Assembly (NCBI GenBank): GCA_947172415.1
Contig: OX359198.1
Coordinates: 1,829,401 to 1,893,400, forward strand
Source of the DNA: Chondrosia reniformis
Lineage: Eukaryota; Porifera; Demospongiae; Chondrillida; Chondrillidae
DNA length: 64,000 bases
Direction: 5' to 3'
Numbering within the stretch: the first letter of the stretch is position 1; every line of letters starts with the position of its first letter. A model generated the notes under the pieces. The model saw only the letters and a list, made by a program, of their open reading frames with translations. It ran no database searches and was not told the DNA's origin. The translations under genes were made by a program, and so were the position numbers. Below are positions 27,526-59,552 of the stretch, piece after piece.

Positions 27526-28221
27526 GTTTTTACATTTTCTTTTAAAATACTTTTTTACTACTCCCTTCTTCCCAGTTGCCACTCTGTTTTTCTTGTCCAT
27601 CTCATCCATACGAGTCACACCTAATGAGAGAGCAGAGAGAAAGAGAGGTCACTACAACAACCACAGACGCACTTAAAGTAGACCTTCAGCTTGATGAGTT
27701 ACAACAGCAAAGACGGAAAGGAAAGAAGGAGAATTCGTTCAACCAACAACTGTCTTGTGATATTAAGAAAAGTAACTCTAGAACACGTAGACAGTACAGT
27801 CTACATCAAATACGGGCAGAGTTAATAGTAACCTAATTTAAGATTTAAATAGTATCAACCAACAATAGTACCTACCCATAGGAGCCTCGTTATACTTGAA
27901 AGTGACTAGTATAAATCTAACTAGTAATAAAACATTCGATTGCTCTAGAAAGAGACCTTATTTATGACGAGCTAAAGGAAAGAATGAGAATCTGTTGTTT
28001 GGAGATGCATCAGTCTATAGCTGGATCAAGTATATACACGGAGTTAATCGTCGAGCTCACCGAGTGGTTTTCTTCTCTATTTACGTCCTGCAGTAGTCTT
28101 GCGCAGCTAGCTCGGCTCGGCTCCATATTGTTACGTCATCATATAAATATGGAGGCGAGGATAGCGTAAAAGACATTCTATACGTATATTTATTATTATT
28201 ATTATTATTATTAATATATAT

Positions 28222-28397: not shown

Positions 28398-28551
28398 AGT
28401 TACACCAAAATTAGTAAAAGAAGGATAATATTCGAAGTTAGATATTGATATTAGTGTGCACATAACAATTTATAGCATATAGCTATAATTTTATACTGAA
28501 GCCAGCTCATAAAAAATAGAAAAGCACAAAATTAGTAAATAATATTTCTTC

Positions 28552-31500
28552 TCAGTCCATTGACATGTATTCTTCCTCTACTGAAGGAGTTATGGAGCTT
28601 GCTGTGTCCTTAAGAGGATTAGTACAGTTCTTACTCATGTTTACATACTCTTTTTCATTCTGGATATGTGTTGCATCTTGTACAGGCTCTTCAGAAATAT
28701 TCATGTACTTTGCTTCTGCTTGCTCTGATCCAGGGGAGTCTATAACATATTCAGTGTCTTGGGGGTCTATGACATATTCGGTGTCTAGGGGGTCTATGAC
28801 ATATTCGGTGTCTTGGGGGTCTATGACATATTCGGTGTCTAGGGAGTCAATGACATATTCGGTGTCTTGGGGGTCTATGACATATTCGGTGTCTTGGGAG
28901 TCATTGACATATTCGGTGTCTTGGGGGTCTATGACATATTCGGTGTCTTGGGAGTCATTGACATATTCAGTGTCTAGGGAGTCAATGACATATTCGGTGT
29001 CTTGGGGGTCTAAGACATTTTCGATGTCTTGGGGGTCTATGACATATTCGGTGTCTAGGGAGTCAATGACATATTCGGTGTCTTGGGGGTCTATGACATA
29101 TTCAGTGTCTTGGGAGTCATTGACATATTCGGTGTCTTGGGGGTCTAAGACATTTTTGGTGTCTGGAGAGTCATTGACATATTCGGTGTCTAGGGAGTCA
29201 ATGACATATTCGGTGTCTAGGGAATCAATGACATATTCGGTGTCTAGGGAGTCAATGACATATTCGGTGTCTAGGGAATCAATGACATATTCGGTGTCTA
29301 GGGAATCAATGACATATTTGGTGTCTAGGGAGTCAATGACATATTCGGTGTCTTGGGGGTCTAAGACATTTTCGGTGTCTGGGGAGTCATTGACATATTC
29401 GGTGTCTAGGGAGTCATTGACATATTCGGTGTCTAGGGAGTCAATGACATATTCGGTGTCTAGGGAGTCATTGACATATTCGGTGTCTAGGGAATCAATG
29501 ACATATTCGGTGTCTAGGGAGTCAATGACATATTCGGTGTCTAGGGAATCAATGACATATTCGGTGTCTAGGGAATCAATGACATATTTGGTGTGTAGGG
29601 AGTCAATGACATATTCGGTGTCTTGGGGGTCTAAGACATTTTCGGTGTCTGGGGAGTCATTGACATATTCGGTGTCTAGGGAGTCATTGACATATTCGGT
29701 GTCTAGGGAATCAATGACATATTCGGTGTCTAGGGAGTCAATGACATATTCGGTGTCTAGGGAATCAATGACATATTCGGTGTCTAGGGAATCAATGACA
29801 TATTTGGTGTCTAGGGAGTCAATGACATATTCGGTGTCTAGGGAATCAATGACATATTCGGTGTCTTGGGAGTCAATGACATATTCGGTGTCTGTGCCTC
29901 CTATAGCAGTGGAGGTCATATCTTGTTTCTCATTTTGATTGCATCCAACTTCACCTTCCAACACATTAGAGGTGTAGCCAGGATTCTTTGACCATTCAAC
30001 TCTGGATCCATCATTGTCATAGAATGATATTTCAGGTGGCTCCTCGCATTCATCATACTCTTCATCAACCATTTTCTCATAAATTTGATCTTTCCTCGAT
30101 CCTTCTTTCTGTACAACATCTACAAGAATAACAAAATGTGTACATTGCAACACAACTCAACAGCAATCAAGCATGTAGTTGAGAGGAAGTTTATTGACAT
30201 TTCAAATGTCAATAAATTTCCAAATGTCATTATTTTTGGTGGACAATGTCATTTTGGAAGAACTGGAAAAGTGATAAGTGAGCCAGGGAAGGGCAATGTG
30301 TGTGAGCATGACATAATAGTTAAATACATGAGACTTCGGAAGTCTGCATTTACACGTACACTTTCAACAGACGGCTGTTTCACCCTCCCTAGGGAGCATC
30401 AGTGTGGTATATTTTGGTGGCGAGTTTAAATGACTGGCAGCAACTTATCAATCTGGGGTCCATCACAGTTAGGTGAAAACTTTGTGATAAATGAATGAGG
30501 AGGTTATATGATTAAAGCCAGATTGAATGCAATTGAACTTAAAGCATAAAACACATTTAAATGAAATGTGAAAAATCATTCTACACTTTGACAACTTAGT
30601 CCAATACAAAGGACTGGTTTTATATCCTCTATATAGAGGTTATATAAAATGGCTGACATCCTATTTTGGAGGTCAGTGTGGAGTCAGTGTTATGATCGTT
30701 TCATGGGAGGTCAATAGGTAAAGTATTAAATTCACAGAAAATACAGTTGTTACTTTTGAAACTCCTGTTATAAAGTTTATACCCATTAATAGAGGGTTCG
30801 GTTCATTGAACACTGATATATATTTAAATCAACGATAGTAATATCTTCATCTTTATCCTATTTTAAATGATATACGTATATATACGTATTATGTGTACTT
30901 AATTGATACAAATATAATAATTATTATATCAGGAACTAACAAGCAGAATATAGCGCTATATATAGCTACATGCACGTAAGGATGTGAAAGAGCTTACCCT
31001 GCATTTGAACATGCAGCACTTGCATTTGAGAGACGACATTCTCCACTTGTTGGTGAAGATCTTCCTTCTCTTTCTCGTGAGCCATTTTATCTTTCAATCT
31101 CTCCAATTCCACCCTTTTAGATTTCCTCCTCACATACCCACACACACAGCAGATAATAACAGTTATCAATATGGCTAACAGTATTAGAAATCCACCAACC
31201 ACTACTGGAACTATAATTATAATTAGATTAAGGGAAATATTAATTTCACCAATCAGTATAGGAACACCATCTCCAATTTGGACCTGCAAAGGATGAGATA
31301 TAACAAGTGAGTGTATACTAACTTTGGAGAGAGGTCATACTGTAAATAATTAGTATAATAATAAGCAAGCCACATACATACTATATGATCACAAATCCCT
31401 CATGTACGACTAAACATAATTATTATTATTATTTTTATTATTATTACTATTAACTTCAATGTGTTATAAAACATAGGATTATTATATATATATACATTAT

Positions 31501-34500
31501 CACTATAACTAAAATAAGATGCTGTTTATGTACGTATATACAGTTACACTTCCTCAACCGGCCATTTGTGTTATATATATACATGTGAATGTGACAATGA
31601 CAACTATGTAAAGATAATTTGGAGCGGTTAAGAGTCTTATTACTAAGTAATTACCATAATTGCAACAGTAGAACCAGCCTGACTGTTAAGACTGTCTGGA
31701 GGAGTACAAAATATTCTTGTATCTGTTAGACTCAAATCTGTACAAGGTTGTCCACTAACAGTGATGCTGTAATCTTCTTGCAAAACATTAAGAAATTTAT
31801 CACCCTAAAATGAATAATAATCAAAATTATAGTTTTGAAAAAATTAAAGGTTCATTGCTTGGCTTAATTTAGTTATTTAATTAATTTATGGTTAGACCTA
31901 CCCTCTCCATCATTTTGGGCACTTAATTGAGATTGCCTATATAGCAAGCTGGACTAACCTTAAACAATAGCTTGAATGTTTATTTGTATTACATTATCAT
32001 TTAGGCAGATTGAGTATGGATATTAGTGATAATCAATTGCAAACCACAATCAATTGAGAAAGCAAAATAGTTAATAATTGGAAATACATGCAACCAAGGA
32101 TAGCTGGTTTGCCACCTGCACTGACAATGACCACAGTAAAGCTCCATGTATATATGCCTCCCAATTAATTGAGCAGTACAAGCAAATTAATTGTTATTTA
32201 CTATAGGGTGGATATTTTAATTAAAGTCAGTCTTATCGGAATAACATATATGTATCTTTAATGTACATACAGTATGTACACATACGTACCTCAATAACAA
32301 TTTGTTCTCCACTTCCTGCAACATAGTCAATTGATACTGGAGTGAACACTGGATCAGCTACAGCTTCTAATGACTCAGTGTCCTGTAAGTTTGACAATGT
32401 CTCTCCATCAAGTCTGAGACTGTAATTGAACTGATCTCCAACATTGACACCAGTGAAGATTGGTACACGACAAATAACAACAACTTCAGATGATCTTACA
32501 ATGCAGTTCTATATATTCATGAGGTAAAGTAAAACTCATGCTCGATCAAGACAAATTTGCACATACAACATATAATCAAAAAACACTTACAACAACAATG
32601 TTGATGTTAGCACCAGTTTGTAGAGTAAGTTGTGGTACTAAAGCAGCATCAAGATTATCACCATTCAATATGACAGTCACTCCACCACTAAATAAGAGAG
32701 AGATGTAATTATTTAATTACTGAATTAAATAGAGAAATCACATGTACACAACATTAATAGGTAAGATAGGTAACATTTAATTGCACAATAATTCACTAAC
32801 ACTGAAGCTAACCTCACAATGATCCTCCCATCAGCACTGTTGTCAGGATCAAACAGTGAAGTGACCCTTGGTACTACATAGCTAAATTTCACATTGTTAC
32901 CTCCAGTGTATATATTCCCATCAATATTCATACTGACATTACCTTCATCTTCAGTGGAAGGTATTGTGGTACATGAGACATGCGTTGTATTGATCAAACT
33001 GATTGAGAGGAAAACAGAGACGTAATATAGAATATGCAACTACTTATGCAATATACAGACAAATTAACAAGAGAGAGTTAAAGCAATTATGCACAAATAA
33101 ATTTTGAGAGCTTAGCTTTTTTTATTGTACATGTTTATGTACATATGTATGTACGTATATGCATGTATCAAATTTCCAGCTTCAAATTAAATGCTTTGAA
33201 AATAGAAACTCACTTCAAACTCATACACACTTGTCCAACAACTGATGCTGCAGTTCTATCCATATTTCCAATACTTAAATTTGAACCAGAAATGTAAACT
33301 ATAGTAGATCCAGCTGTTGGACCTCGCACTGGGCAAATCCCTCTAAGTACTGGAGATGCATACATAAAGCTGCCAACCTCTGTATTAGACCCAGCTAGTG
33401 ATCTGATTATCATTATTGTTGTTGGACCAACAACATTAGCTGGAGGAACTCTACACATAAACTTCTTTCCAGAAATACTGTTTGCTCGATCAATTATACA
33501 GTTATTTTGACCAATTTTAATGATAACTCCTTCTCCATCAAGTACTCCAAGATTAATGCCAGTGATAGTTAAGAGAGTACCTCCTTCAAGAGGACCTGAC
33601 TTTGGAGTGTACTATTGAAAGGATATATGCATGAGATTATATTATTATTATATATTATGCCAAATGCCAACCAGTTCTGGTTAAGGGGCACAGGGCTATA
33701 CCGACACGACACGTATAAACCATTGCCACTTAAGGCTACCAGGCCGTCCACCCAGGTACATAGCCCGACTACCTGGGTGCATTAAGCCACCGCCACTTAA
33801 GGCTACCAGGCTGCACTTCCCAGACAGTCACATACACAAGCACCGAGTTCGGAGGTGGTGCATTATTTAGTTCAAGAGGCTAGGGTGAAGGGTAATTTAC
33901 AGAGTGGGTAATGTAGATAATGTAGGTGTATATATGTATACACAAAAGTAATAAGAAAGTAATAAAATATCCATAAAATATATAGGGGAGGGAGCCATGG
34001 GGTTATTATCCGACGTAGTTTCGTCTTTTCCACATTTTTAATATTAAAAACCCGATTTTAGTACTCCTGCAAGCCTCAGTCAATACCACTATCAGCTTTT
34101 CACTATCTAGTTTACTATCAAATTCAGCAACCCTCTCTCTTAACTCCTCAAACAAGCTACCTCTTTCATTACTAATCTTTTCACACCTAAGAATGAAGTG
34201 GTTACTGTCTTCTACTTCCTGTGATTCACAGTGCTGACACAAGCATCCACTCCTCTCTATTCTAGACCATCTACCCTCTTCTACTCTCAGTCTAGCTGTG
34301 TCTCCTTTTATCTTAGAAATAAGGCTTCTAACTTCTCTATTTCTAATATCAGTACTATAACTAGGTTCACTAATAGACAGTAGGCCAGCTAAGTCTTGCA
34401 ATTTAATTCATACGTATACATGATTTGAAATACTGAAGTTTAAAATGATCTATATATATATATATATACTCACTACTAATTACATGTAAAATTTGCAGGT

Positions 34501-37500
34501 ATAAAAGACTTACACTGTCAACCTCTGGTTCTCTACAAAGTGTAAAGTTTGGAGGTACCACAAATGTTCCACTACCACACTGTCCTCTTAAGACACAGTC
34601 GGAGAGGTCATTGCAGTATCCACAATTGAAATCTGAATCAACTGAGAGACAACTTGAACATCCAATTTCAAGTCTACTGCAATCGTAGAGTACAACTACA
34701 AGACAAATCAGTTGGAACTGAAAATATTTACAAACAATATATAGGTGATACAGGATTATTGTAGAAACTGTATATGTCATATTGTACTGTGTTTATACAA
34801 ACATGCTACAAACATATGAACATATAAAATGAATTTACAAAGTTGGTCAACCAATTTACCATTTAATACTCCTTGAGGTTGGTCAATGATAAAACTCTCA
34901 CTTCCATTTGTCCATACTAGGTCGATACTCACTTCCACTTGAGATTCATCTTGAGGAAGAAGATCAATTGGATTGTTTATCTGACAAGCTACAGACTGAC
35001 TGCTGTTATCAACCATAAGTGTTAATGTAACTGGAGGAGAACCAGCTCTTTGGATCACACATTCATATGAGTAGCCAGAAATCTATACAAACAGATAAAT
35101 ATTGTACATATTCTGTAGTCGAGAAATTAGATATTGTAAAAGAGTGTAAACTATTCTTGCATGTCTTTGTATATACAAAGATATATGTGTATAGATGTAG
35201 TATATCACATTATCTAATCACAAGACCCTAATTCAAAACAGTATATACAAACTTTACACTGACTACTCACTGGTGCCACTAGACTGTTTGCAGTTAGTTC
35301 TAAAGTGACATCTGGATTAGTCAGTCCTTCGTGAAGGTAGTACCTTCCATCCTCACTCATGTCATTTGGAAGGAACCTCGGACACATGTCAGGATCAACC
35401 TGTTATGGACACAAACACAATTATCAACACTAGATGAGGTTCAAAGATGCACAAGTAAGGTTACTTTAGCACTCACGTTAGATGTCATTCCAGTACAAGT
35501 GTCACCATTTGTTCTACATTCAGTATCCACTCCACACCACGTACAAGTGAATCTACCAGTACACGATGTACAACTGAAGGAAGAAGATACAAAACAATTA
35601 TATGACACACTCACCACAAACAAGTGGATAACTTAGTGAACTACAAAGTTACTCTAAGACATGAAGAGACGGCATATATAACTCACTTCATATGTACTGT
35701 ACAGTCATAGAATATAACTCCATCTTGTACTAGTCCAAAGTCAATACCAGAGACAGAAGACTTCAAAGTAAGGTTGACTGTCATTGAATCTACAAATTCA
35801 GAGATATCACATTACCACCGCCATAGCTACGATCAGGAGTGATTTAATAGTCAAAATGGATATATTAGCACTTTCAGTACAAATGATAGTCACTATATAG
35901 CAGTCTACATACATATGTACATAGTATACAAATGATATATGTACATATATATATATGTAGGTCTTTAATTAATTAATTAATTTACCCTTTACCGATTGTG
36001 AACCACTTTAGTGGCTGTATAAGTTCCCAGTCGCAAAGACGAAAAGTTATATAGTAATTTGTTCTGATACTTTTGCTAATATGAGTGTATGAAATAAAAA
36101 ATATTACAGTATTGCCTGTTTTTGGCAAGCTGCAATATTTTTTTAATTACAGTGTTTTTAGTCATTAATTATAAACTAACCTTTGAGGACACAAATGAAA
36201 CAATGCTCTTAGATTATTATCCAAATGTAAGGCCATATTTCATAGAAAATGTTTTTGTGCAGGCTTTAAGTTACATATATAGTATTGGTAAAGGTGGTTT
36301 CTAAATCCTTTCCGTTGGTTCAATATAAGTTAATTTTAAGCTAAAAAACTAGAAGCTCGAGTCATTTTATTCTACGTGGTGGCATGGCCTTTTTTCATGC
36401 ATTAGCACCTCTTTGTTTCCTCTTTACTTCTTTTGATGCCACAGCCTTGTAGCGTCATGCAGGAGCTGGCATTCATGCAAAGACATAACACCACAGCTAG
36501 TTACGCCAAACCTTAGATAGTAGCATGGAAGACCTATGATAGTAGCTTTTCATCGTTCCACACCCTGTTGTCCTGCAAAACTTACAGTTCACCGTGATAA
36601 TCAATCGAGGTGTCATGAAACTGAATGCTATGTTTTAACAGCTGACCTACGTATTGTTAGTAACCAAAAACTTAGAAAACTTCTTAAGAAGGACCAAAAT
36701 TTAGAGAACCTAATAACTTTAATTGGGTAACTGCTTTAAAAATGTGTAAGGAAGGTCTTAGAAAATATAAGATTACCTGGGCCCGTAGAGAAAATGTATC
36801 CACTTCTGTCTTTAGTGAGTGGGAAAATGCTGTACTTAATAAAATTAATGATACGATCTCTAAGCTGTCTAAATTGTATACCAAATCCTCAGTAGCCAAG
36901 AAGACCCTTACTTGCCCTAAAATTAAGAAATTCCTAGCAGACCTACATGATAAGTATGTTATAGCCCCTGCCGATAAGGCCTCTAATAATATAATATTTA
37001 TATTTAAGTCCTACTATAGACAAATTATTAATGAAGAACTAGGCAGTTCCTCCACTTATGCTAAATGTACAGTAGAACCCCAACAGCTAATTAGGAAACA
37101 CATAGATTTCTTAAAACTAGAGAACTTAGAACCTAAACCAGACTGGTGTAACCTTCCCTCTTTTTACTGGATGCCTAAGCTACATAAGAACCCTTACAGC
37201 TACAGATTCATAGCTGCCTCTCACAAATGTACTACCAAACCCCTTTCTAGATTTCTAAATTCGGCACTCAGACTAATTCTCAAACATTTTAGAGAATACT
37301 GCCTAGGTATATATAGGAATGCCTTTTGGATAGTTGAAAACTCACTAGAAGTCTTAGATAGTCTTAGGTCTATACCCACTAGAAACGCCCAGCTAGCTAG
37401 TTTTGATTTTCTACCTTATATACAGTGATCCCCCATAACCTACTTAAAGACAAGATTACTAACCTTATTCATAGTGCCTATACCTGTAGTAAGTCCCAAT

Positions 37501-40500
37501 ATATAGAAGTCTGTCAGGATAAAGCCTTTTGGTCTAACAATGTCTCCAATAAAGCAGTCACAGCTGTTCATTTAGTAGAGCTCTTTAACTACCTTATTGA
37601 CAACATTTATGTATGTGTAGATGGTTCTGTATTTAAGCAATGTGTAGGTATCCCTATGGGTACTGACTGTGCCCCTGTAGTTGCTAATCTTTTTCTGTTT
37701 GCCTATGAGTATGAGTTCATGAAAGGACTACTTAAGGATAACATCACCCTAGCTATTAAATTTTCCAATACTTATAGGTATATTGATGACCTTTTATGTA
37801 TTAACAACAAGGATTTTGAACTGTCAATTAGTGATATTTACCCCAAAGAACTTATTCTTAAAAAGACAAATACCAGCCCTAGGAAATCCCCCTTTTTAGA
37901 CTTAGATATATATAACCATTACTAACAATCAATTTATCACTAAAGTATATGATAAGCGAGAGGACTTTAACTTTGATATAGTAAATTTCCCCCATTTAGA
38001 TAGTAATATTCCTAATACCCCAGCCTATGATGTCTTTATTTCACAACTAATTAGGTATTCCAGAATATGTAGTGACTTCTCCAGTTTTCAGTGTAAAAGT
38101 TTGCAGTTATGTAGTAGGCTTATTAAACAGGGTTACAAATATTTTAAGCTAAAATCAACCTTTAAAACCTTCCTATCCCGGCAGCCTCTAGTTAGAATCA
38201 AGTATAAGCAAAAAGTAGCTAGTATGCTTAAGGACTGTCTTGTTTTACCCCATATTGTGTTACCCCACCTCCAAAGAAATGTTACTACTAGAAGACCTAA
38301 GGGTAGACTTATGTAATATGTCCTACTTGTGTCTATAGTTATGCTGAGTCTGTTTTACCTATAAGCAAGATTACTAATAGATAAGTTAATTGGACCTACA
38401 TTCCTTTCATAAAATTAAATTTCATCATGTGTCTTAGTTAATACCTTATTTAACTTTTGGTGCCAAAATAGTGTATATAAGGCCCCTAGATTTAGCATAG
38501 AGAGCCAAGGATTCACAGAAGATCAAGATAAAGAAAAAGACAAAGACTCCCAGGATCACTGATGAAGGGTGGAATTCCCAGAAACGGCTGTCTGACCCAG
38601 TGGAGAAGAAGATGAAAGAAGGGAAAAGAAGGAAGAAAAGACTCCTGTATCTTCATCTAAAGCTCTCTTTAGGTTTAGTTCCCCTATAGGCTCTTTTTAC
38701 AGAATAGGCATATAGCATGTAGGAAAATGGTATATTAGATTTTTCATGGACATATATACAAACATACATACATATGACGACTCAAGCACCACGATTATTG
38801 CCTCGCCTTTCAGCTCAACAATAATACACAATTCCTTATAAGGAAATAACCAACCTTCCTTATAAGGCAATGACCAACTTTCCTTATAAGGAAATGACCA
38901 ACCTTCCAGTTCTTGTGTAAACTGAGGTATATCAGGTACCTCACACGAGTACATGTCTCCAGATGTTAGAGTGAGATCACCAGATCCTACACCATCAAAC
39001 ACACACTGGTAGCTCTCACCAGACAACAGAGGAGGGAGATTGGCCACTATGATCTCCTGTACAAGTAGACAATAGAAGGTAGAAGATACAGACATGTAAA
39101 TAGTGGATGAAAGTAATATAAGAGAGTAAAGAATAAGCAAAACATATACTAAACAAACAATATAGTAATGATATACGTACGTACGTATGTATATATATAT
39201 ATATATATATATATACTGCATTGAGACAATTATGTAGGAACATCAAATTTTAATTACATACATATTCTTATTAACTCACAATCACACTAGTCTCTCTTGG
39301 AAAAGCTTTCTCATTTCCTGAAATACTCACAGCTGATGATATAGTTACACTTAGACATTCACTGTTCTCCTTAACCCAACGAAGAGGAGAACTACTGTTG
39401 GGACATCTGGACACTCTGGAGCACTTGTTCTCAACTGTACACCATCCACACAGTCTACCTCCTCCCATCACACAGGAACTGCAGTCTGTAAAGTTTGAAC
39501 ACTCTTCTACTGGAACACGATACACCTACAATCATGGAGATGAGAGACAATGAAGTAGAAACACTCTCCTAACATGATGACACAGACACTCTCTCCTAAC
39601 ATGATGACACAGACACTCTCTTCTAACATGATCACACAAACACTCTCTCCTAACATGATGACACAGACACTCACTTCATCTTCAGTCAGTCCATACACAT
39701 AATTAGATCCTCTTGCATACTCTAATGTTACCACTGGTTTGGTAGACACTTTCCATGTTTGTTCTGACATTGATGTGTCTGATACAGGAGTAGTCAAGTT
39801 TGGAGTAGTGAACTACACAATGAAGTATTGTTATATACAATTGAGAACATACATTAATATTCTTTTTATATACCTTTCTAACTTCTCCCATTTCTGTTCC
39901 AATAAATATCACTATTACATCATCAACTATAAACACTTTTGTTGAAGATACTGTGATTCCGTTGACTTTAAATAGAGGAGTTTTCTCATGAACTGGTCCA
40001 GCTGTGGGATTAGCTTGATCTTCAGTAGATAACCTTTGTGGTCCGCTATAAACACCAAATGCACTCCTTTTCTCCAAGTCACAAAACTCCTGATAGTGAG
40101 CAAATAAGAATGGAAAGACTCCAGAAACTGCATATAGATACCATTTGTATACACTTTGCTGTTAATACACATGTAGTTGAGTAGTCCAATAATAATAAGA
40201 AACTGTATACAGTACATATCAACTTACAATTGATTCCCCTGATACACATTGTTGCAATTCTGAGGTCCAAATTGGACTTAGATCAATGTTGGTAGATGTA
40301 CAAGTTGTAAGGGTTACATTAGCAGCAGAATCAATTGCAGAAATGGGAAAACTACAAATGTTCGTGTCTTGTGTATCTGTTGAGAATACTGAAACCACAA
40401 GTGTTGGCTCATCTACTCCATCTTCAACGAGTAAGAAGTTAGCACTGATCAGTGCATTGTCAAAATCATCTAAAGTTATAGAACTAGGATGTTTTTGTTG

Positions 40501-41247
40501 CTGTCCACAAAACAATCTAATTTCATACCAGCTGTCCCATGCATATCCATCACACAATCGAACAATTCTGACAGCATCAGTGGCGACTCTATCACTTCCA
40601 ACTAAATATACAAAGTTACCGACTCTTGCTCCTCCTCTGTATGTTCTAGTGAAGCCAATTGATTTATCTATTTGAGGACTATCTAAACCTTGGCTTCTTG
40701 AATCACTTCCACCAGAAAATGGATATTCTCCGTGATACAATCTGTTAGCTCCACCACTCCCATCCGGTCCACTTGTAGCTACAAAGAACGTCTCTCCTCC
40801 TTCAACGAAACCTCTACTTACTGAATATGAGCTTGTCGTTGGCATAGTAACAAGACGTCCCCTTAGAGTAAGTGTAGCTCTACCTAAATAGCCACTCAGA
40901 CTGAAATTAGAACTGTTGTGTATCACACAATAGGCATTCCCTTTGATAGAAGGTGTCCGACAGACGACAAGACGATCTTCCTCGACTGATAATACCATTC
41001 CCCTTGGAGTCGCATCTGTGTCCGAAAAGTCCCTCATCACGGTTGATAAATCTTCTGATAACATGTAGACAGCTCCTCCCGACTTTTCATCTAAAACGAA
41101 CACTGTCCCAGATTCAGCTACCACTAGTTTGCTGAGACTACCTGAAGGAAGACCTCCTCCAGAGCTAAGTTGAGCACTTGAGAACTGAGCAAAAGCTATA
41201 ATAATCCAGACAAAAAGTAACCTGCAATTGGAATTATAAGTACTCAT
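28552..41247 (-). CDS. Plexin-like receptor A with tyrosine-repeat tail, 17 exons
   Basis: Exons, 5' to 3': 40228-41247, 39874-40089, 39675-39812, 39280-39525, 38903-39056, 35687-35789, 35477-35573, 35271-35399, 34860-35082, 34514-34695, 33214-33611, 32813-32998, 32591-32687, 32290-32508, 31655-31804, 30998-31283 and 28552-30119. They total 5412 bp, that is 1803 residues plus stop. Layout: signal peptide (LLFVWIIIAFAQFSSA), sema domain to about residue 460, PSI 1 (CSNFTDCSSC), IPT, PSI 2 (CTSCTGRFTCTWC), IPT, PSI 3 (CSSCLSVDSDFNCGYC), several IPT (YTPKSGPLEGGTLLTITG), one membrane helix near 1205-1235 (IIIIVPVVVGGFLILLAIL) and a charged juxtamembrane coiled coil. This is the plexin ectodomain order, but no RasGAP follows. 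The last exon instead encodes 522 residues with IYEKM and EYMSM (YxxM), KYMN and EYVN (YxN) and 43 tandem units. Intron 5 holds a Penelope-family insertion and intron 10 a LINE fragment. Receptor tyrosine signalling is inferred. Confidence 0.92.
28732..29892 (-). repeat. 43 x 27-bp coding repeat, DTEYVIDSL units
   Basis: Exactly 43 units of 27 bp in the last exon of gene A encode nine-residue units. Thirty have tyrosine in EYVID/KYVID context, nine in EYVND, and four have asparagine in place of tyrosine (ENVLD or KNVLD; units 10, 20, 28 and 33). Unit ends vary between DSL, DSQ, DPQ and DSP. The ENVLDPQ unit recurring ten units apart shows block duplication of about 270 bp. Gene B has two equivalent units and the 54348 remnant has one. 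The antisense strand is also open through the array, a result of the repeat. Confidence 0.97.
33637..34430 (-). pseudogene. 5'-truncated non-LTR retrotransposon (LINE) in intron 10 of gene A
   Basis: 34006-34401 encodes the end of a non-LTR reverse-transcriptase ORF. A C-terminal zinc-knuckle-like pattern, CLCQHCESQEVEDSNHFILRC, is followed by a charged helix to the stop. A ~370-bp 3' untranslated tail ends in an ATAATAATAAT-rich stretch near 33637-33655. Gene B has only a 123-bp intron here (46712-46834), so the insertion is specific to A, whose intron 10 is 902 bp. The catalytic RT region is missing. The clade was not determined. Confidence 0.75.
36330..38690 (+). mobile_element. Decayed Penelope-family RT element in intron 5 of gene A
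   Basis: Broken open frames at 36536-36730, 36742-37428, 37425-37925 and 38101-38316 belong to one RT. PADKASNN is followed by FYWMPKLHKNPYSYRF, then SFDF; after a frameshift come GIPMGTDCAPVVANLF and RYIDD (the catalytic YxDD box), then KSPFLDLDI. Stops and shifts near 36730, 37420 and 37925 disable it. MPKLHK and RYIDD place it with Penelope-like RTs; no GIY-YIG domain is seen. The 3' end (38500-38690) contains a hammerhead-like motif. Gene B's intron 5 is only about 110 bp, so the element arrived after the A/B duplication, or B lost it. The exact ends were not fixed. Confidence 0.8.
38553..38598 (+). ncRNA. Hammerhead-like ribozyme, second PLE family
   Basis: Core CTGATGA at 38559-38565 and GAAAC at 38581-38585 enclose a GGG/CCC stem II. 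GGATCA before the core and TGACCC after it pair at 5 of 6 positions as stem I. A short stem III (AC..GU) would place cleavage after C38592. Penelope-like elements are known to carry type I hammerheads with very short stem III. Copies at 53112-53158 and 60414-60460 keep the core. Confidence 0.6.
38833..38902 (-). repeat. 24-bp minisatellite at the exon 5 donor of gene A
   Basis: About three units of 24 bp, each starting with GTTGGT and then CATTTCCTTATAAGGAA or a variant on the gene strand. The first GTTGGT is the exon 5 donor itself. Gene B has a single unit at the same place (about 48166-48189). Confidence 0.8.
39547..39674 (-). repeat. 27-bp minisatellite filling intron 3 of gene A
   Basis: About 4.5 units of 27 bp start exactly at the exon 3 donor: the first unit begins GTGAGTGTCTGTGTCATCAT, later units GAGAGTGTCTGTGTCATCAT. 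Because GT has become GA, later units are not donors. The array makes up most of the 149-bp intron. Confidence 0.85.
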
Positions 41248-41785: not shown

Positions 41786-44700
41786 TCAGTCCATTGACAT
41801 GTATTCTTCCTCTACTGGAGGAGTTATGGAGCTTGCTGTGTCCTTAAGAGGATTAGTACAGTTCTCACTTGTGTTAACATACTCTTTTTCTGTTTGGTCT
41901 TCAAAGGCAGCATTCCGGGTAAGTGTTGCATCTTGTACATTCATGTACTTTACTTCAGCTTGCTCAGATTCAATGACATATTCGGTGTCTAGGGAGTCAA
42001 TGACATTTTTGGTGTCTGTGCCTCCTATAGCAGTGGAGGTCATATCTTGTTTCTCATTTTGATTGTATCCAACTTCACCTTCCAACACATTAGAGGTGTA
42101 ACCAGGAGTTTTGGACCATTCAACTCCATCTTTGTCATAGAATGATATTTCAGGTGGATCCTCACATTCATCATACTCTTCGTCAACCATTTTCTCATAA
42201 ATGTTACCTTTCCTCGGTCCTTCTTCTTTCTGTACAACATCTACAAGAATAACAGAATGTATACATTGCAACACAATTCAATAGCAATCCTGTGTATATA
42301 AAGCATATATATTCAGTATAAAGTATACAGTACATACATATATGTACAGAATATATATAGAGCATTTTATTTACAGTGGAACCTGCCCAATATGGTCACC
42401 TATTGTATGGGACCTAGTTGGCCATTGCTGTACATGAGTGGTGACCATATTTTGATGTGATTGAAAAACATATATCTGCATATTAAATAATTTTTGGGAC
42501 TTAATGGAAGTACTAGCACTTTAAGCAAGTGACTGCCTAAGATAGGTAACCTTTCCGACAGGTTATAAATATAATATGCACATACGTAACTATATATATA
42601 AATGACAGCTAACTAGCTACATATATAACACTATATACTATATGTATATAAACATATATTACGTGTATACTTTCAAAAGACAACTGTTTCACCCTCCTTA
42701 GGGATTATCAGTGTGGTATATTTAGGTGGTGAGTTTAAATGACTGGCAGCAACTTATCAATCTGGGGTCCATCACAATTAAATGAAACACATTTGTAATA
42801 AATGAAATAAACGAAAGAGGAGGTTATAAACGTATATATATATAGTTTAAATGCTCACAATGAACAATTGCACAAAATCAGTGTAATTTAAAGGTACCCG
42901 GTAGTGATGAAATGTGAAAATTCATTCTAGAATCATTCAATGTAATCTCCATAGAGGTGGTATTAATGGCTGACATCCTATTTTGGAGGTGAGTGATTGG
43001 GATTGTTGCCGTACAGTGTATGGACAAACGTTTCATTGGCCATCATTGAGAGGTCACTAGCTATAGTACTGAATTCACAGAAATAGGTTTTGAAATTTCT
43101 GCTATATATGCCCATTAATAGAGGGTTCATTGAATACTGGTAATATAATTATAACTAATGATAGTATTATAACATATAGAAATTTATACATATTATATAC
43201 AAACTACTGTCTTCATAAACTCTATAAAACTCACAAACATTAATTAATGATTATCAGGAACTAACAAGTAGAATATATATATACTAGCACTATATATAGC
43301 TACATGCAGGCAGGGATGTACACACATGTACAATACTTGTGAAATAGCTTACCCTGTATTTGAACATGCAGTACTTGCATTTGAGTGACGACATTCTCCA
43401 CTTGTTGGTGAAGATCTTCCTTCTCCTTCTCATGAGACATCTTATCTTTCAATCTCTCCAATTCCACCCTTTTAGATTTCCTCCTCACATACCAACACAC
43501 ACAGCAGATAATAACAGTTATCAATATGGCTACCAGTATCAGAAATCCACCAACCACTACTGGAACTATAATTACAATTAGATTAAGGGAGATATTAATA
43601 TCACCAATCACTACAGGAACACTATCTCCAATTTGGACCTGCAAAGGATGAGATATAATAAGTGAGTGCATACATATTTAGGAGATGGGTCTGTACTGTA
43701 AATTATCAACATCTTTAGAACAAGCCATGCACATATATACACATGTCTATTCTATATATTATCACAAACCCTCATGTACGTATATATATGCCTATATTAT
43801 TATTAACTTCAATGTGTAATAATATATATAGACTAATATACCTTATCAGTATAAAACATGCATATATAATAATAAGATATACTTCCTCAGCAGGCTGCAG
43901 ACTGTTCATGTAACATATATACAGGTGAATATCACAGTAACTGAGTATATGTATACAAAGATTATTTGGAGCAGTCAAAAATCTTATTACTAAGTAATTA
44001 CCATAACTGCAGTAGTAGAACCAGCCTGATTGTTAAGACTGTCTGGAGGAGTACAGAATATTCTTGTATCTGTTATACTCAAATCTGTACAAGGTTGTCC
44101 ATTGACAGTGATGTTGTAATCTTCTTGCAAAACATTAAGAAAGTTTTCACCCTGAAATGAATGAAAACAATGTATAGCATATAATGTTTAGCCTGTGAAC
44201 ACATAGCCCGGCATATATAATTTACTTAATTAATCTATTGTGCAATTAAATTGTCCCTACCCTTCCATCATTTTGGGCACTTATTAATATTTAAGCAAAA
44301 TGAACTAAGCTTTACACAACAGCTTGAAAATCATTACAGTATTTATCATTTAGGTAGATTACATATTGATATCTGAAGTTATAATCAATCCAAAAGTAAT
44401 CAGTGGAGAACTTCATGAACAAGAAATAAAGAAAAGTAACATAAATAATGGGAATGTACAACAGGACAGCTGATTTTGACCACCATGCAGTGCTCTACCA
44501 TTGAGTTACAATGACCACATGCAGTGCTCTACCATTGCGTTACAATGACCACATGCAGTAATGTTCGATTTGTTTATTGAGAGTAAAGCATATGCATGGA
44601 ATAACACAATGAATGATTCAATTAATTTACAGAATACCCTCTACGCAGTAATGAGCCTCTACAGTACCATGTTCTATTTATGTATTCCAATTAATTGAGT

Positions 44701-47700
44701 ATTACAAACAAATTAATTGTTATTTTTTCTTAGTGGAGATCCATTTTAATTAAAGTCAGTTTATTTGAATATCCATGCACATACATACGTATACAATGTA
44801 GTTTATACGCATTCATTGGTAATATACTAATTCTGTATTATATATAATAAACATACACCTACTTTGCTAATATAAATCAATAATATATGTACACATACTT
44901 CAATAACAATTTGTTCTCCACTTCCCACAACATAGTCAATTGATACTGGATTGAACACCGGATCAGCTACAGCTTGTAATGACTCAGTGTCCTGTAAGTT
45001 TAACAATGTCTCTCCATCAAGTCTGAGACTGTAATTGAACCGATCTCCAACATTGACGCCAGTGAAGATTGGCACGCGACAAGCAACAACACTAGATGAT
45101 CTTACAGTGCAGTTCTATATACGTATGTGAAGAAAAATAAAAACTTGCGTAAAGACATATACATACGACATATAACCAAACAAACACTTACAACAACAAT
45201 GCTGAAGTTAGAACCAGTTTGTAGAGAAAGTTGTGGTAATAAAGCAGCATCAAGATTATTACCATTCAATATGACAGTCACTCCACCACTAAATAAGAAA
45301 GAGATGTAATTAATTAATTACCGAAATAAATAGAGAAATGTAAATACTGATTTCAAATTTATATATGCCTACATAAATTTAAATATCCAAGTATTTGACT
45401 AGTATGTACTTATGACTAGCATGATAATACAAACATCTGCTCACAATGTATACAAACATTTTAACTACAATCTTTCTGTATATTCACTTCCCTTACTAAC
45501 GCTTACAACGTACACACTTACTAAATATATTTATATACTTACCGAGAACATGCTCCCGTTGTATAGAAATATGTGGTTATTAAGTTTAAGTTACTCTTTG
45601 TGTTTATGTTTCGAAGGCAATTTGTGCATGAAAAGTCAGGGAAGGAGAAAACTTCAACTTTTGAGCTTATAAGGATGAAATTGATGTCAATGTTAGGATC
45701 ATTCTAGTATATAAAAACACTTATGCTGCAATGAGTCATAAAATGTATATATAATTGTAAGACTTTTAATTACTGTTTTGTTTCCCTTATTGCACAACAT
45801 GTAAGTACAAAGTAAGATAGGTAACATTTAATTGCACAATAATTCACACACACTGAAGCTAACCTCTTAATGATCCTCCCATCAGCACTGTTGTCAGGAT
45901 CAAACAGTGAAGTGACCCTTGGTACTACATAGCTAAATTTCACATTGCTACCTCCAGTGTATATATTCCCATCAATATTCATATTGACATTACCTTCTCT
46001 TTCAGTGGAAGGTATTGTGGTACATGAGACATGTGTTGTGTTGATCAAACTGATTGAGAGGAAACAGAGAAATAATATAGAATATGCAACTACTTATGCA
46101 ATTAACAAATAATTACACTAAAGTTTAAATTTAAGTTAAAGTTAGTTAAGGGTTAAAATACGTTACTAGAGGGTTAAATAATTACATACAAGTAAATATG
46201 GAACAGAAAGATTTGTCTTTTTAGTAACAGGGACTGTACATATAAGTACATGTACTGTATATGTATGTATCAATACAAATCTTTTTAAAAATGCTCTGAA
46301 AATAGAAACTCACTTCAAACTAATACAAATTTGTCCAACAATAGATGCTATAGTTCTCTCCATATTTCCAATATTTAAATTGGATCCAGAAATGTAAACT
46401 ACAGTAGATCCAGCTGTTGGACCTCGCACTGGGTAAATCCCTCCAATTACTGGAGATGCATATATAAAGCTGCCAATCTCCGTATTAGACCCAGCTAGTA
46501 ATCTGATTATCATTATTGTTGTCGGACCAATGGAAGTACCTGGAGGAACTCTACAGATAAACTTTTTTCCAGAAATACTGTTTGCTCGATCAATTGTACA
46601 GATATTTTGACCAATTTTAATGATAACTCCTTCTCCATCAAGTACTCCAAGATTAGTACCAGTGATAGTTACGAGAGTACCTCCTTCAAGAGGACCTGAC
46701 TCTGGAGTGTACTATTGAAAGGGTAATATGTAAGAGATTTGAAATGCTATAGTAAAATGATACTATATATATATCTCATTCAAAACTACATGAATGTACA
46801 ATCACAGATATATGTATGTATATAAAAGACTTACACTGTCAACCTCTGGTTCTCTACAAAGTGTAAAGTTTGGAGGTACCACAAATGTTCCACTACCACA
46901 CTGTCCTCTTAAGACACAGTCGGAGAGGTCATTGCAGTATCCACAATTGAAATCTAAACCAACTGAGAGACAACTGGAACATCCAATTCCAAGTCTACTG
47001 CAATCGTAGAGTACAACTACAAGACAAATCAGTTGAAACTGAAGATATTGACTAACAATAAGTGATACAGGATTATTGTAGAAACTGTATAATATGTGAT
47101 ACAAAATGATTTAACAAAGTTTCCATGGTGAATTTTCATAAAATAGACATACATTGGTCTAACAATTTACCAGTTAATGTTCCTTGAGGTTGGTCAATGA
47201 TAAAACTCTCACTTCCATTTGTCCACACTAGGTCGATACTCACTTCCACTTGAGATTCTCCTTGAAGAAGAAGATCAATTGGACTGTTTATCTGACAAGC
47301 TACAGACTGACTGCTGTTAGTAGCAGTAAGTGTAACTGGAGGAGAATCAGCTCTTTGGATCACACATTCATATGAGTAGCCAGAAATCTATACAAACATA
47401 TTGTACATATTTTGTAGTAGAGGAATTAGACATTGTAAAAGAGTGTGAACTATTCTTGTCTTTGTATATACAAGGATATATGTGTATAGATGTATTATCT
47501 TATTCTCTAATCACAAGACCCTAATTCAAAACAGTATATATAAACTTTATACTGTCTACTCACTGGTGCCACTAGACTGTTTGCAGTTAGTCCTAAAGTG
47601 ACATCTGGATTAGTCAGTCCTTCGTGAAGGTAGTACCTTCCATCCTCACTCATGTCATTTGGAAGGAACCTTGGACACATGTCAGGATCAACCTGTTATG

Positions 47701-50700
47701 GACACAAACACAATTATCAACACAAGATGAGGTTCAAAGATGCACAAGTAAGGTTACTTTAGCACTCATGTTAGATGTCATTCCAGTACAAGTGTCACCA
47801 TTTGTTCTACATTCAGTATCCACTCCACACCACGTACAAGTGAATCTACCAGTACACGATGTACAGCTGAAGAAAGAAGATACAAAATAATTGTATGACA
47901 CACTCACCACAAACAAGTGATAACTTAGTGCGCTACTAAGCACATATAAGACATGAAGAAGGCATACATAACTCACTTCACGTGTATTGAACAGTCATAG
48001 AATATAACTCCATCCTGTACTAGTCCAAAGTCAATACCAGAGACAGAAGACTTCAAAGTAAAGTTGACTGTCATTGAATCTAAGTATAATATTTAGTGTT
48101 TCCACACCTTAAAATATATAAGGCCCATCAAATGTATACCATTATTCATAGTCTAAACCTCTCACATTCCTTATAAAGAAATGACCAACCTTCCATTCCT
48201 TGTGAAAACTGAGGTATATTGGGTACTTCACACGAGTACATGTCTCCAGATATTAGAGTGAGATCACCAGATCCTACACTATCAAACACACACTGGTAGC
48301 TCTCCCCAGACAACAGAGGAGGGAGATTGGCCACTATCACATCCTGTATGTATAGGTATAATATAAGGTAAAAGATACATATTAATAGAAGATGAAAGTA
48401 ATATATATTAAGAGAGAGAATGGAAGAGAGAGGAGAAAGGAGGAGCTAAATATATAATAAATAATATATACGTATATGCATGTATATTTATAATATTGAG
48501 GCAATTATATTGGAATTTCTTCATATATGGAAGGAACATCAACTTTGAATTATATATGCATACATCTTCCTATTAACTCACAATCACACTAGTCTCTCTT
48601 GGATGAGCTTTTTCATTTCCTGAAATACTCACAGCTGATGATATAGTCACACTTAGACATTCACTGTTCTCCTTAACCCAACGAAGAGGAGAACTACTGT
48701 TGGAACATCTGGACACTCTGGAGCACTTGTTCTCAACTGTACACCAACCACACAGTCTACCTCCTCCCATCACACAGGAACTGCAGTCTGTAAAGTTGGA
48801 ACACTCTTCTACTGGAACACGATACACCTATAATCATGGAGAGGAGAGAAAATGATGTAGATACTCTCTCCTAACATGATGACACAGACACACTCTCCTA
48901 ACATGATGACACAGACACTCTCTCCTAACATGATGATACAGACACTCTCTCCTTACATGATGACACAGACACTCTCTCCTAGCATGATGACACAGACACT
49001 CTCTCCTAACATGATGACAGAGACACTCACTTCATCTTCAGTCAGTCCATACACATAATCAGATCCTCTTGCATACTCCAATGCTACTACTGGTTTGGTA
49101 GACACTTTCCATGTTTGTTCTGGCATTGATGTGTCTGATACAGGAGTAGTCAAATTTGAAGTAGTGAACTAAATGAGTGAAAAATACAATTGAATATATT
49201 GAAATTGTAAAGTAAACATTCTTTTTACCTTTCTAACTTCTCCCATTTCTGTTCCAATAAATATCACTGTTACATCATCAACTATAAACACTTTTGTTGA
49301 AGACACTGTCACTCCACTGACTTGGAATAGAGCAGTTTCCTCATGGACTGGTCCAGCTGTGGGATTAGATTGATCTTCAGTAGACAACCTTTGTGGTCCA
49401 CGAGTACCAAATGGACTACTTTTCTCCAAGTCACAAAATTCCTTAGTGAAATCAAAAATACATCAAAGTATGTGGAACTGCAACACAAAGTATTGACTAT
49501 ATGTTTACACTTTGCAGTCAAGAATGCAGTGGAATGTATACATACTACAAGTAAATAAAAAAAAACATTTACAAAAATGATGTTGGAAGTAGGAATAGCA
49601 GTGTTCACTAATACATCTGCAAAAAGTATCGAAACAAGACACTGATTATATGATAAGGCTAATCATACAGAAGTTGCATATATATATACTGAAATTTAAG
49701 TAACTTAACCATACACTTCTGTGTTTGGGCGAACCATTCCTACTTGAGGTTACTCAACAACATTGCTATTTCCTACTTCCAACATCATATTTGTAAATGT
49801 TTTTTATTTACTTGTATTACCCCTTTTTTCTTCTTAATATTACTTGTTTTAAATTGATTTGAAAATGTTCTTGGCGAAAATCTCGAAATAACGTCTCAGA
49901 CAAGAGAAATGTGCCAAAAACCATGATCTCTTATCTAAAAATGGCGGCCGAGAAGACGACACATTTTCGCTTTTCATAATTAACCTGTTTCCTGTAGAGC
50001 GCATTCGGACTTAGGGCTGTCTATTCCCTAGTTCGGAAACATTTATAACGATTTATAACTTGTACGTGCCCGCATAAGTTCGCATATTAGCGCTAGTCCA
50101 TTTGACAAAAGAAGAAGAAAAAGTGAATTTCGGGAATGGGCCTATTCTCCTGGTTAACCGTTAACGCTGTAGAGCGTCGAAAGACGTTTTGGCATTTTGA
50201 AAAGAGTGCATGAATGGCTGCGAATATATAACCGCTTCGTTGGCGATTTATAAGGTGTTAATCAGTAATACATTAGATAGGGCGGCCATCCTTTTTTTTC
50301 GGCCATTCCTACTTAGAGAGTACCGTACTCTCTGATAAATGGGTTTCCTGCACATTGACGTAATCCTGAGATCCAAATATATAGGACTAAAAAAGTATCT
50401 AAGACTGTAACTTGCACTGTACGTATACATATATACATGTCAACTTACTATTGACTCTCCTGATACACATTGTCGCAATTCTAAAGTCCATATAGGACTT
50501 AAATCAATGTTGGTAGATGTACAAGTTGTAAATGTTACATTAGCAGCAGAATCAATTGCAGAAATGGGAAAACTACAAATGTTAGTGTCTCCTGTATCTG
50601 AGGCAAGTACAGACATTACAAGTGTTGGCTCATCTATTCCATCTTCAACAAGTAAGAAGTTTGCACTGATAAATGCATTGTCAAAATCATCTAAAACAGA

Positions 50701-51444
50701 AGTAGGTGGTTGTCCACAGAACAATCTAACCTCATACCAGCTATCCCATTCACTTCCATCACACAATCGAACAATTCTGACAGTATCACGGGTAGTTTCA
50801 TCACTTCCAACTGAATACACAAAGTTACCGACTCTTGCTCCTCCTCTGTAAGTTCTAGAGAAGCCACTTGATGTATCTATTTGAGGACTATCTAAATCTC
50901 TTGCAGCACTTCCATCAGAAAATTGATATTCTCCGTGATACAATCTGTTAGCTCTGCTCCCATCTGGTCCACTTGTAGCTACAAAGAACGTCTCTCCTCC
51001 TTCAACGAAACCTCTACTAACAGAATATGAGCTAGTCAATGGCGTTCTAATATTAAGTCTCAATGGAGAAAGACGAGCTCTAGCTAACTCAGTCAGAGTA
51101 GAGCTGTCGTGTATCGTACAAAAGGCGTTCTCTTCACTAGAAGGTGTCCAACAAATGACAAGACGATCTTCCTCGACTGATAATACGATTCCTCGTGGAG
51201 TCGTACTTGTGTTCGAAGGGGACATCATCACGGTAGATAGATCTTCTGATAACATGTAGACAGCTCCTCCCGACTTTTCATCTAACACGAACACTCTCCC
51301 AGATTCAGCTACCACTAGTTTGTTGAGACTACCTGAAGGAAGACCTCCTCCAGAGCTAAGTTGAGCACCTGAGAACTGAGCAAAGGCTATAATTATCCAG
51401 AAAAAAAGTAACCTGCCATTGGGATTGTATACGTAGGTACCCAT
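41786..51444 (-). CDS. Plexin-like receptor B, short tyrosine tail, 17 exons
   Basis: Exons, 5' to 3': 50449-51444, 49229-49441, 49031-49168, 48582-48827, 48190-48343, 47977-48079, 47770-47866, 47564-47692, 47171-47387, 46835-47016, 46314-46711, 45864-46049, 45192-45288, 44899-45114, 44002-44151, 43353-43638 and 41786-42240. They total 4263 bp, that is 1420 residues plus stop. The start is the ATG before GTYVYNPN, aligned with gene A; an open frame runs further upstream. Domain order equals gene A: sema, PSI/IPT repeats, membrane helix, coiled coil, tyrosine tail. The tail keeps IYEKM, GYNQN, EYVIES, KYMNVQ, EYVNTS and EYMSMD, but only two repeat units, one with tyrosine. The exon 7 donor is ATGAGT rather than GTGAGT; a GTAACC 12 bases on would add four codons in frame (MSAK). 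Otherwise the gene looks intact. Confidence 0.88.
44486..44553 (-). repeat. 34-bp tandem pair with tRNA A-box-like sequence, intron 14 of gene B
   Basis: Two 34-bp units on the minus strand read TGTGGTCATTGTAAC then CAATGGTAGAGCACTGCA. TGGTAGAGCAC matches a tRNA D-arm/A-box, and GGTCAAAATCA just beyond is a poor B-box. This suggests a degraded tRNA-derived retroposon whose head was duplicated. Confidence 0.4.
48862..49030 (-). repeat. 27-bp minisatellite filling intron 3 of gene B
   Basis: About six units start at the exon 3 donor (GTGAGTGTCTCTGTCATCAT), followed by GAGAGTGTCTGTGTCATCAT units. It is the same array as in gene A intron 3, with more copies, so it predates the duplication and has changed length since. 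Confidence 0.85.
49550..49812. mobile_element. MITE-like element, copy 2, intron 1 of gene B
   Basis: Terminal inverted repeats of about 38 bp: CATTTACAAAAATGATGTTG plus GAAGTAGG at the left, and CCTACTTCCAACATCATATT to TTTATTTAC at the right. The interior (GTTCACTAATACATCTGC, then CAGAAGTTGCATA) matches the element at 16691-16980. The gene A intron 1 at this point is only 138 bp (40090-40227), so the element inserted in B only. Confidence 0.75.
50270..50345. repeat. Short dispersed repeat in intron 1 of gene B
   Basis: Second copy of the repeat at 21425-21500 (GATAGGGCGGCCAT, then AGAGAGTACCGTACTCTCT). The approximately 430 bp before it (49830-50260) have a higher CG content than neighbouring introns and no recognised gene. 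Confidence 0.6.
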
Positions 51445-54347: not shown

Positions 54348-55445
54348 TCAGTCCATTGACATGTATTCTTCCTCTACTGGAGGAGTTATGGAGCTTGCTG
54401 TGTCCTTAAGAGGATTAGTACAGTTCTCACTCGTGTTTACATACTCTTCTTCTGTTTGGTCTTCAAAGGCAGCATTCTGGATAGGTGTTGCATCTTGTAC
54501 AGGCTCTTCAGAGACATTCATGTACTTTGCTTCTGCTTGCTCAGATCCAATGACATATTCAGTGTCTGTACCTCCTATAGCAGTGGAGGTCATATCTGGT
54601 TTCTCATTTTGATAGTATCCAACTTCACCTTCCAACACATTAGAGGTGTAGCCAGGATTTTTGGACCATTCAACTCCATCTTTGTCATAAAATGATATTT
54701 CAGGTGGATCCTCACATTCATCATACTCTTCGTCAACCATTTTCTCATAAATGTTACCTTTCCTTGGTCCTTCTTCTTTCTGTACAACATCTACAAGAAT
54801 AACAGAATGTATACATTGCAACACAATTCAATAGCAATCCTGTGTATATTTATTAAAGGCATATATTCAGTATAAAGTATACAGTACATACATATACATA
54901 CGTAGTATATATATATAGAGCATTTTATTAATTTACAGTGGAACCTGCCTAATATAGTAACCTATTGTACTGGACCTAGTTAGCCATTGCTGCATATGAC
55001 TGGTAACCATATTTCCATGTGTTTGAAAAACATATTATATACCTACATATTAAATAAAATAGTGCCTATTTTTGGGACTTAATGGAAGTACTAGTCACTT
55101 TAAGCAAGTGACTGCCTAAGAGAGGTAACCTCTTGTACAGGTTATATGCACAGCTAACTGGCTACATATATGTACATATACTATATAAAAACACATATTA
55201 CATGTACATGTACACTTTTGACAGACAACTGTTTCACCCTCCTTAGGGAGCATCAGTGTGGTATATTTTGGTGGTGAGTTTAAATGACTGGCTATAACTT
55301 ATCAATCTGGGGTCCATCACAATTAAGTGAAGCATTAGTAGTAAATTAAAGAGGAGATAATTATTTAAACAAGATTGTGCAATTGAGAACAGAGAGACAT
55401 ACGTACTTGCACAAAACATTGTGAGATCTATTAGTACAAACTGCA
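54348..55445 (-). pseudogene. Receptor C remnant: tail exon plus part of intron 16
   Basis: 54348-54790 equals exon 17 of genes A and B (443 bp, same phase). It encodes IYEKM, EYDEC, GYYQN, a single EYVIGS unit, KYMN, EYVN and EYMSMD, then stop, and is still open throughout. 54791-55445 matches intron 16 of gene B and then similarity ends. No exon 16 or ectodomain is found to the right. It is therefore a truncated third copy, although its coding sequence is undamaged. Confidence 0.8.
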
Positions 55446-56444: not shown

Positions 56445-56506
56445 AAAGATTTCACTATATCGGTACGATCGAGGGAACCACACTAGCCAAAATCAACTTA
56501 GAATAG

Positions 56507-59408: not shown

Positions 59409-59552
59409 CTATTCTAAGTTGATTTTGGCTAGTGTGGTTCCCTCGATCGTACCGATATGCAAGAACCTAGCCACGCAGAAGTCCTTCACAAAGATTTCAC
59501 TGTTTAACTCAAATGCGTATCAAAATTTTATTTTAATTGTCTTTGGATGCAG

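What the first reader, a model, noticed from the sequence alone, without database searches (positions are those of the whole stretch)
28552..30119. Plexin-type receptor with 39 tandem tyrosine motifs in its tail
The last exon of gene A encodes 43 exact 27-bp units (DTEYVIDSL type), 39 with tyrosine, where gene B has two units and the third copy one. Nine units read EYVND, an asparagine at +2 as in Grb2 SH2 sites; thirty read YVID. They are flanked by YxxM motifs (IYEKM, EYMSM), which bind PI3K p85 when phosphorylated. If kinases act on them, one receptor could recruit dozens of SH2 proteins, and the number would be tuned by unit gain or loss. Four units have Asn in place of Tyr. I know of no described plexin-family receptor with such an array. 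Phosphorylation is inference.
Basis: partly seen in the sequence, partly recalled or inferred. Interest (0 to 1): 0.88.

Follow-up and report, generated by a model that had tools for sequence, protein, structure and literature searches.

The report
GAP-less plexin with repeated tyrosine tail
An animal gene for a plexin-like cell-surface receptor seems to lack the usual plexin signalling domain and instead ends in a tail where one nine-residue motif, mostly with a tyrosine, is repeated 43 times; it could be a many-site docking tail or a largely neutral coding repeat.

Summary
Gene A's last exon (28552-30119, minus strand) holds 43 head-to-tail 27-bp units at 28732-29892 without indels or stops: 39 Tyr, 4 Asn, 9 YVND, 30 YVID. 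Gene B has two units (one Tyr), copy C one.

"Plexin-type" needs correcting. The ectodomain matches plexin A and MET structures, but no plexin RasGAP was found: in the model the transmembrane exon joins straight to the tyrosine tail, and only 538 bp separate gene B's stop from gene A's start. GAP-less plexins are known from the sponge Amphimedon (PMC6374515). New here: a tail with YxxM and YxN motifs in all three copies, plus the array.

The array's function is open. Unit variation does not differ from neutral (9 of 15 change types nonsynonymous, P = 0.21), and a 10-unit block pattern suggests recent amplification. An open frame is weak evidence: a 30-bp array of untested coding status is open for 476 codons.

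Most likely: a kinase-dependent docking tail in which the array adds valency while unit number drifts; a neutral passenger array is almost as likely. No transcript or phosphorylation data were available.

The parts
28552..30119 (-). last exon of gene A: cytoplasmic tail, 521 aa from the first whole codon, 46 Tyr
   Evidence: acceptor at 30119, in phase with the donor at 30998; stop ends at 28552
28732..29892 (-). 43-unit 27-bp coding array, consensus DTEYVIDSL; 39 Tyr, net charge -120 over 387 aa
29893..30119 (-). single-copy 5' part of the tail (in A: IYEKM, EEYDE, FYDND, GYTSN)
   Evidence: shared with B and C; dN/dS 0.37, 0.29, 0.18 for AB, AC, BC
28552..28731 (-). single-copy 3' part of the tail (KYMN, EYVN, EYMSMD)
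   Evidence: in frame downstream of the array and shared with B and C; little constraint measured
30998..31283 (-). exon 15 of the model: transmembrane segment, RRKSKR, coiled-coil-like stretch
   Evidence: topology read from the sequence
31655..41247 (-). gene A exons 1-14 of the model (signal-peptide-like start, Sema-like, PSI, IPT) with their introns
41786..51429 (-). gene B, paralogue: matches to all 15 upstream exons of A plus a tail exon with two units (first part of exon 2 not cleanly matched)
54348..54827 (-). copy C: ORF of the tail exon, one unit; no other exon seen in the window
   Evidence: exons 1-15 of A gave no match in 54828-64000 at E <= 0.01

Best explanation
Gene A encodes a single-pass receptor with a plexin-like ectodomain that lacks a detectable plexin RasGAP and carries an acidic tyrosine tail instead. 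Shown: the anatomy as a gene model, the paralogues, and the array in frame inside an exon whose both ends are shared with B and C. Inferred: on ligand-driven clustering, tyrosine kinases phosphorylate the tail; the YxxM and YxN sites present in all three copies recruit PI3K- and Grb2-type SH2 proteins; the array adds many further acceptor sites, nine of them YVN, raising valency and favouring clustering. The array arose recently from one DTEYVI-type motif, in part by blocks of about 10 units, and its copy number probably drifts rather than being finely tuned.
For: Array and counts; in-phase splice junction; plexin A1/A2/A4 and MET ectodomain matches, best E 6.5e-43; one PSI and the IPT domains above Pfam cut-offs; no RasGAP in the tail exon or in 7 of 9 non-exonic minus-strand ORFs of 45 aa or more between 28084 and 31399; gene A's start codon (41247) lies 538 bp beyond gene B's stop (41786); all seven non-array Tyr of A are present in B and C; 5' part of the tail dN/dS 0.18-0.37 against 0.62 for the upstream exons, A versus B. 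Precedents: GAP-less plexins in Amphimedon (PMC6374515); repeated tyrosine RM2 domains in Monosiga RTKB2, an RM2 being phosphorylated and bound by an SH2 domain (PMC3584944); pTyr valency controls nephrin clustering (PMC4238058); YxNM/pYxNx in DAP10 recruits p85 and Grb2 (PMC7226588).
Against: No transcript, proteomic or binding data. Unit variation does not differ from neutral. The first unit of B and four units of A lack Tyr. Tyr conservation in the flanks says little, as the copies are 87-90% identical to A there. The 3' part of the tail shows little constraint (dN/dS 0.69, 1.41, 0.39, on few changes). Thirty of 39 array Tyr (YVID) fit no motif of those checked. In the RTKB2 precedent no complex of the whole tail with MbSrc1 was detected by co-immunoprecipitation (PMC3584944).
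Confidence: 0.48

Rival explanations
1. Neutral coding minisatellite. The tail tolerates an acidic insert whose unit happens to hold a Tyr; signalling, if any, uses only the single-copy motifs.
For: 9 of 15 change types nonsynonymous against 72% expected, P = 0.21; 10-unit block pattern, permutation P = 0.0022; B and C do with 2 and 1 units; the window is rich in minisatellites, including 27-bp and 24-bp arrays placed in introns of gene A by the model; a 30-bp array at 23012-24550 of untested coding status is also open for 476 codons.
Against: Units are young, so power against mild constraint is low (0.46 at omega 0.4); no stop or indel in 1161 bp, and the exon end stays in frame.
Confidence: 0.4
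2. The array is not part of the mature protein, or its copy number is an assembly artefact (skipped by splicing, collapsed or over-extended in assembly).
For: All 53 AG dinucleotides in the array lie in phase with the upstream donor and the best score inside the range of the 15 used acceptors; no reads were available.
Against: Good predicted junction at 30998/30119; the downstream single-copy end stays in frame and is shared with B and C; 17 unit types give anchors for assembly.
Confidence: 0.05
3. The array acts as a charged spacer or kinase sink (net -120 over 387 aa), not as a docking platform.
For: Composition; most units are YVID, without a match among the motifs checked.
Against: Nine units read YVN; Tyr is kept in 39 of 43.
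Confidence: 0.07

Closest known systems
Amphimedon queenslandica Plexin-A1 to -A4 (Alves et al. 2019, PMC6374515; sections 7, 8 and passages read)
   Same: plexin ectodomain with an intracellular part that has no conserved domain
   Different: what I read does not mention tyrosine motifs or an array; those intracellular parts are called relatively short, gene A's tail is long; identity with those four genes was not tested
Monosiga brevicollis RTKB2 with six RM2 repeats (PMC3584944; abstract and passages read)
   Same: receptor tail with repeated tyrosine units; an RM2 domain is disordered, is phosphorylated and then binds the MbSrc1 SH2 domain
   Different: RM2 is about 80 aa, six copies, in a receptor with its own kinase; here 9 aa, 43 copies, no kinase found
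Nephrin and DAP10 tails (PMC4238058, PMC7226588; passages read)
   Same: membrane proteins that signal through pTyr motifs in their tails; valency matters for nephrin clustering
   Different: a few sites, not dozens; the ectodomains differ (recalled)
p130Cas substrate domain and CagA EPIYA repeats (recalled; papers seen as listings)
   Same: repeated tyrosine motifs for SH2 proteins
   Different: not receptors; the YxxP motif of Cas (recalled) is absent from the array units, where +3 is Asp

Membership tests
Plexin | ectodomain similar to plexins, with PSI and IPT domains | tested here: met
   phmmer to Plexin-A1 over residues 1-551 of the C-terminal ectodomain piece, E 6.5e-43; Plexin-A2 E 4.8e-23 for the N-terminal piece; PSI 28.5 bits and IPT 96.9 bits pass Pfam, a second PSI (20.7) does not
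Plexin | Sema beta-propeller | tested here: inconclusive
   Pfam Sema 18.5 bits, below cut-off 23.7; AlphaFold of exon 1 failed, mean pLDDT 36.0
Plexin | intracellular RasGAP domain | tested here: not met
   none in the tail exon or in 7 of 9 non-exonic minus-strand ORFs of 45 aa or more between 28084 and 31399; 538 bp between gene B's stop and gene A's start. Not scanned: 24600-28084 and gene B's own introns
GAP-less sponge plexins (PMC6374515) | plexin ectodomain, intracellular part without conserved domain | tested here: met
   on the tail the only Pfam family over its cut-off is PF08789 (64.5 bits), a 38-position model for which no single stretch passes and the best stretch is 13 residues, taken as a repeat artefact; no PDB match at E <= 1
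GAP-less sponge plexins (PMC6374515) | orthology or sponge origin | not tested
   no genome held for the window; no relatives in genome contigs or viral contigs
MET receptor kinases | intracellular tyrosine kinase | tested here: not met
   no kinase in the tail exon or in the 7 ORFs
Multivalent pTyr docking tail | phosphorylated tyrosines that bind SH2 domains | not testable with these tools
   motifs only

The most novel reading that the evidence does not exclude
A lineage of receptors kept the plexin ectodomain but exchanged the RasGAP for a phosphotyrosine docking tail, and one copy turned a single tyrosine site into a minisatellite, so that docking valency (46 tail tyrosines in this copy) changes by unit gain or loss between alleles, and possibly between transcripts, because every AG in the array is an in-phase potential splice acceptor.
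Probability: 0.25. Interest if true: 0.8.

Novelty: new variant of a known kind. Interest (0 to 1): 0.5.

Why it matters
If the array is phosphorylated, it is a natural experiment in receptor valency: one 64-kb window holds closely related tails with 1, 2 and 43 units. It would also suggest how a plexin ectodomain without its GAP can signal, a question raised by the known sponge plexins with truncated intracellular parts.

Tried and rejected
Own-genome search: none held. Relatives: exact 26-base unit pattern in genome contigs, 0 matches; copy C tail protein in viral contigs (4 stretches matched a pattern) and genome contigs (14), none confirmed; these collections hold viruses, bacteria and archaea, so absence says little about animals. 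My first unit parser stopped after 11 units and was replaced; the first automatic gene model had several poor exon ends and was replaced by sites chosen. AlphaFold of exon 1 with two sequences was unusable, so no fold search was run. Extracellular tyrosine sulfation of the array was set aside because RRKSKR follows the transmembrane segment (read from the sequence; topology not computed). ITIM and ITSM readings rejected: +3 is Asp. The open frame as evidence for selection was set aside after the 30-bp array comparison, with the caveat that the coding status of that array was not tested. The antisense ORF over the array (28520-29938 +) was taken as a by-product of the unit, untested. Paper searches that listed no description of such an array: (titles and abstract starts; one search listed no paper).

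Full report
Observation. The array is real and at the stated place. Tandem Repeats Finder gives 43.0 copies of 27 bp with 0% indels at 28734-29893. Read on the minus strand in the frame of the exon there are 43 units from 29892 to 28732, of 17 DNA types and 13 peptide types; 39 of 43 have Tyr and 4 Asn; 9 read YVND and 30 YVID. Gene B has two units, of which the first has Asn, and copy C has one.

Gene context. Using a simple splice-site matrix and the reading frame, I modelled gene A as 16 exons from 41247 to 28552. The junction before the tail pairs the best-scoring of the chosen donors (30998, score 5.9) with the acceptor at 30119, in phase. The exon 5/6 junction has no good donor in phase; a weak one at 38899 would restore phase. 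The ectodomain matches plexin A1, A2 and A4 and MET structures; Pfam gives one PSI and the IPT domains above cut-off, a second PSI and Sema below it. After the transmembrane segment come RRKSKR and a coiled-coil-like stretch, then the tail exon.

No RasGAP was found. The tail exon has none. Of 9 non-exonic minus-strand ORFs of 45 aa or more between 28084 and 31399, I scanned 7, without a GAP match. Gene B's stop (41786) is followed after 538 bp by gene A's start codon (41247). Not scanned: the stretch 24600-28084 below gene A, apart from what is listed, and gene B's introns. Gene B has matches to all 15 upstream exons of A, though the first part of exon 2 is not clean; copy C shows only the tail exon inside the window at E <= 0.01.

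Known relatives. Alves et al. 2019 (PMC6374515; I read the abstract, sections 7 and 8, and 12 of 24 places for five search terms) report six plexins in the sponge Amphimedon queenslandica, four of them with relatively short intracellular parts and no conserved domain. The genes here fit that description except for the length of A's tail. Whether they are those genes, or whether the organism is that sponge, was not tested. What I read does not mention tyrosine repeats in those tails.

The tail. Outside the array gene A has seven Tyr, and all seven are in B and C; in A they read IYEKM, EEYDE, FYDND, GYTSN, KYMN, EYVN and EYMSM. B and C have a further Tyr (GYNQN, GYYQN) where A has Cys. The copies are 87% and 90% identical to A, so this conservation is weak evidence by itself. 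dN/dS by Nei-Gojobori is 0.37 (AB), 0.29 (AC), 0.18 (BC) for the 5' part, and 0.69, 1.41, 0.39 for the 3' part, on few changes. For the 15 upstream exons, A versus B, it is 0.62 (dS 0.119, dN 0.073; exon 2 in part). So the 5' part of the tail is the better kept; the 3' part is not clearly constrained. YxNM and pYxNx are described as p85 and Grb2 sites in DAP10 (PMC7226588, passages).

Array history and selection. Units repeat best at a lag of 10 units (11 of 33 exact; permutation of unit order over lags 2-21, P = 0.0022), which points to block duplication. The four Asn units all end NVLDPQ, so Tyr was probably lost once in A and copied. Nine of 15 change types against the consensus are nonsynonymous, where 72% is expected without selection (P = 0.21); pN/pS between units is 0.68 over all units and 0.74 over distinct ones. 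Power is 0.90 for omega 0.2 and 0.46 for omega 0.4, treating change types as independent. The Tyr codon shows one change type. Strong purifying selection on units is therefore unlikely and mild selection is undecided. An open frame alone proves little: the 30-bp array at 23012-24550 is open for 476 codons in one plus-strand frame, though I did not test whether that array is coding.

Mechanism. The reading I favour is a docking tail. Monosiga RTKB2 is the nearest precedent that I found: six repeated tyrosine domains; an isolated RM2 is phosphorylated by the receptor kinase and then binds the MbSrc1 SH2 domain, although no complex of the whole tail with MbSrc1 was seen by co-immunoprecipitation (PMC3584944; abstract and passages). 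Nephrin shows that pTyr valency sets the threshold of clustering (PMC4238058; passages). The step from these to gene A is inference. Against it, 30 of 39 array Tyr are YVID, which fits none of the motifs tabulated in PMC7226588.

A further oddity. All 53 AG dinucleotides in the array lie in the phase of the last-exon acceptor. They score -3.2 to 1.1 on my simple matrix; the 15 used acceptors of gene A score -2.1 to 5.4. Use of such sites would give in-frame receptors with fewer units. There is no evidence that it happens, and the matrix separates used acceptors from background AGs only modestly (median used acceptor at the 86th percentile of 3777 AGs).

Verdict. Observation confirmed; interpretation partly supported; the plexin label is corrected to GAP-less plexin-like receptor. 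New variant of a known kind, with a near-even contest between docking valency and a neutral passenger array.

Noticed in passing
39557-39672 and 48859-49028: A 27-bp array with another unit begins at the donor of exon 3 in gene A and lies at the matching place in gene B; intronic by the model.
   Followed up: partly
38832-38907: A 24-bp array sits at the weak exon 5 donor of gene A.
   Followed up: partly
56457-59458: Penelope-like element (name recalled): reverse transcriptase and GIY-YIG matches below Pfam cut-off, flanked by 250-bp inverted arms 99% complementary.
   Followed up: partly
36688-37925: Plus-strand ORFs inside intron 5 of gene A; the second has a reverse transcriptase match below cut-off, the first no Pfam match.
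   Followed up: partly
38539-38763 and 60401-60587: A 225-column match of 70% identity between intron 5 of gene A and the region upstream of copy C.
   Followed up: no
1-12059: 169-bp satellite, about 71 copies, fills the left end of the window.
   Followed up: no
23012-24550: 30-bp array, about 51 copies, open for 476 codons in one plus-strand frame; used here as a comparison, coding status untested.
   Followed up: partly
28732-29892: Every AG in the array (53 of 53) is in the phase of the last-exon acceptor.
   Followed up: partly
40228-41247 and 50449-51429: Exon 1 (Sema region) is the fastest diverging of the 15 upstream exons between A and B (dS 0.233, dN 0.127).
   Followed up: no
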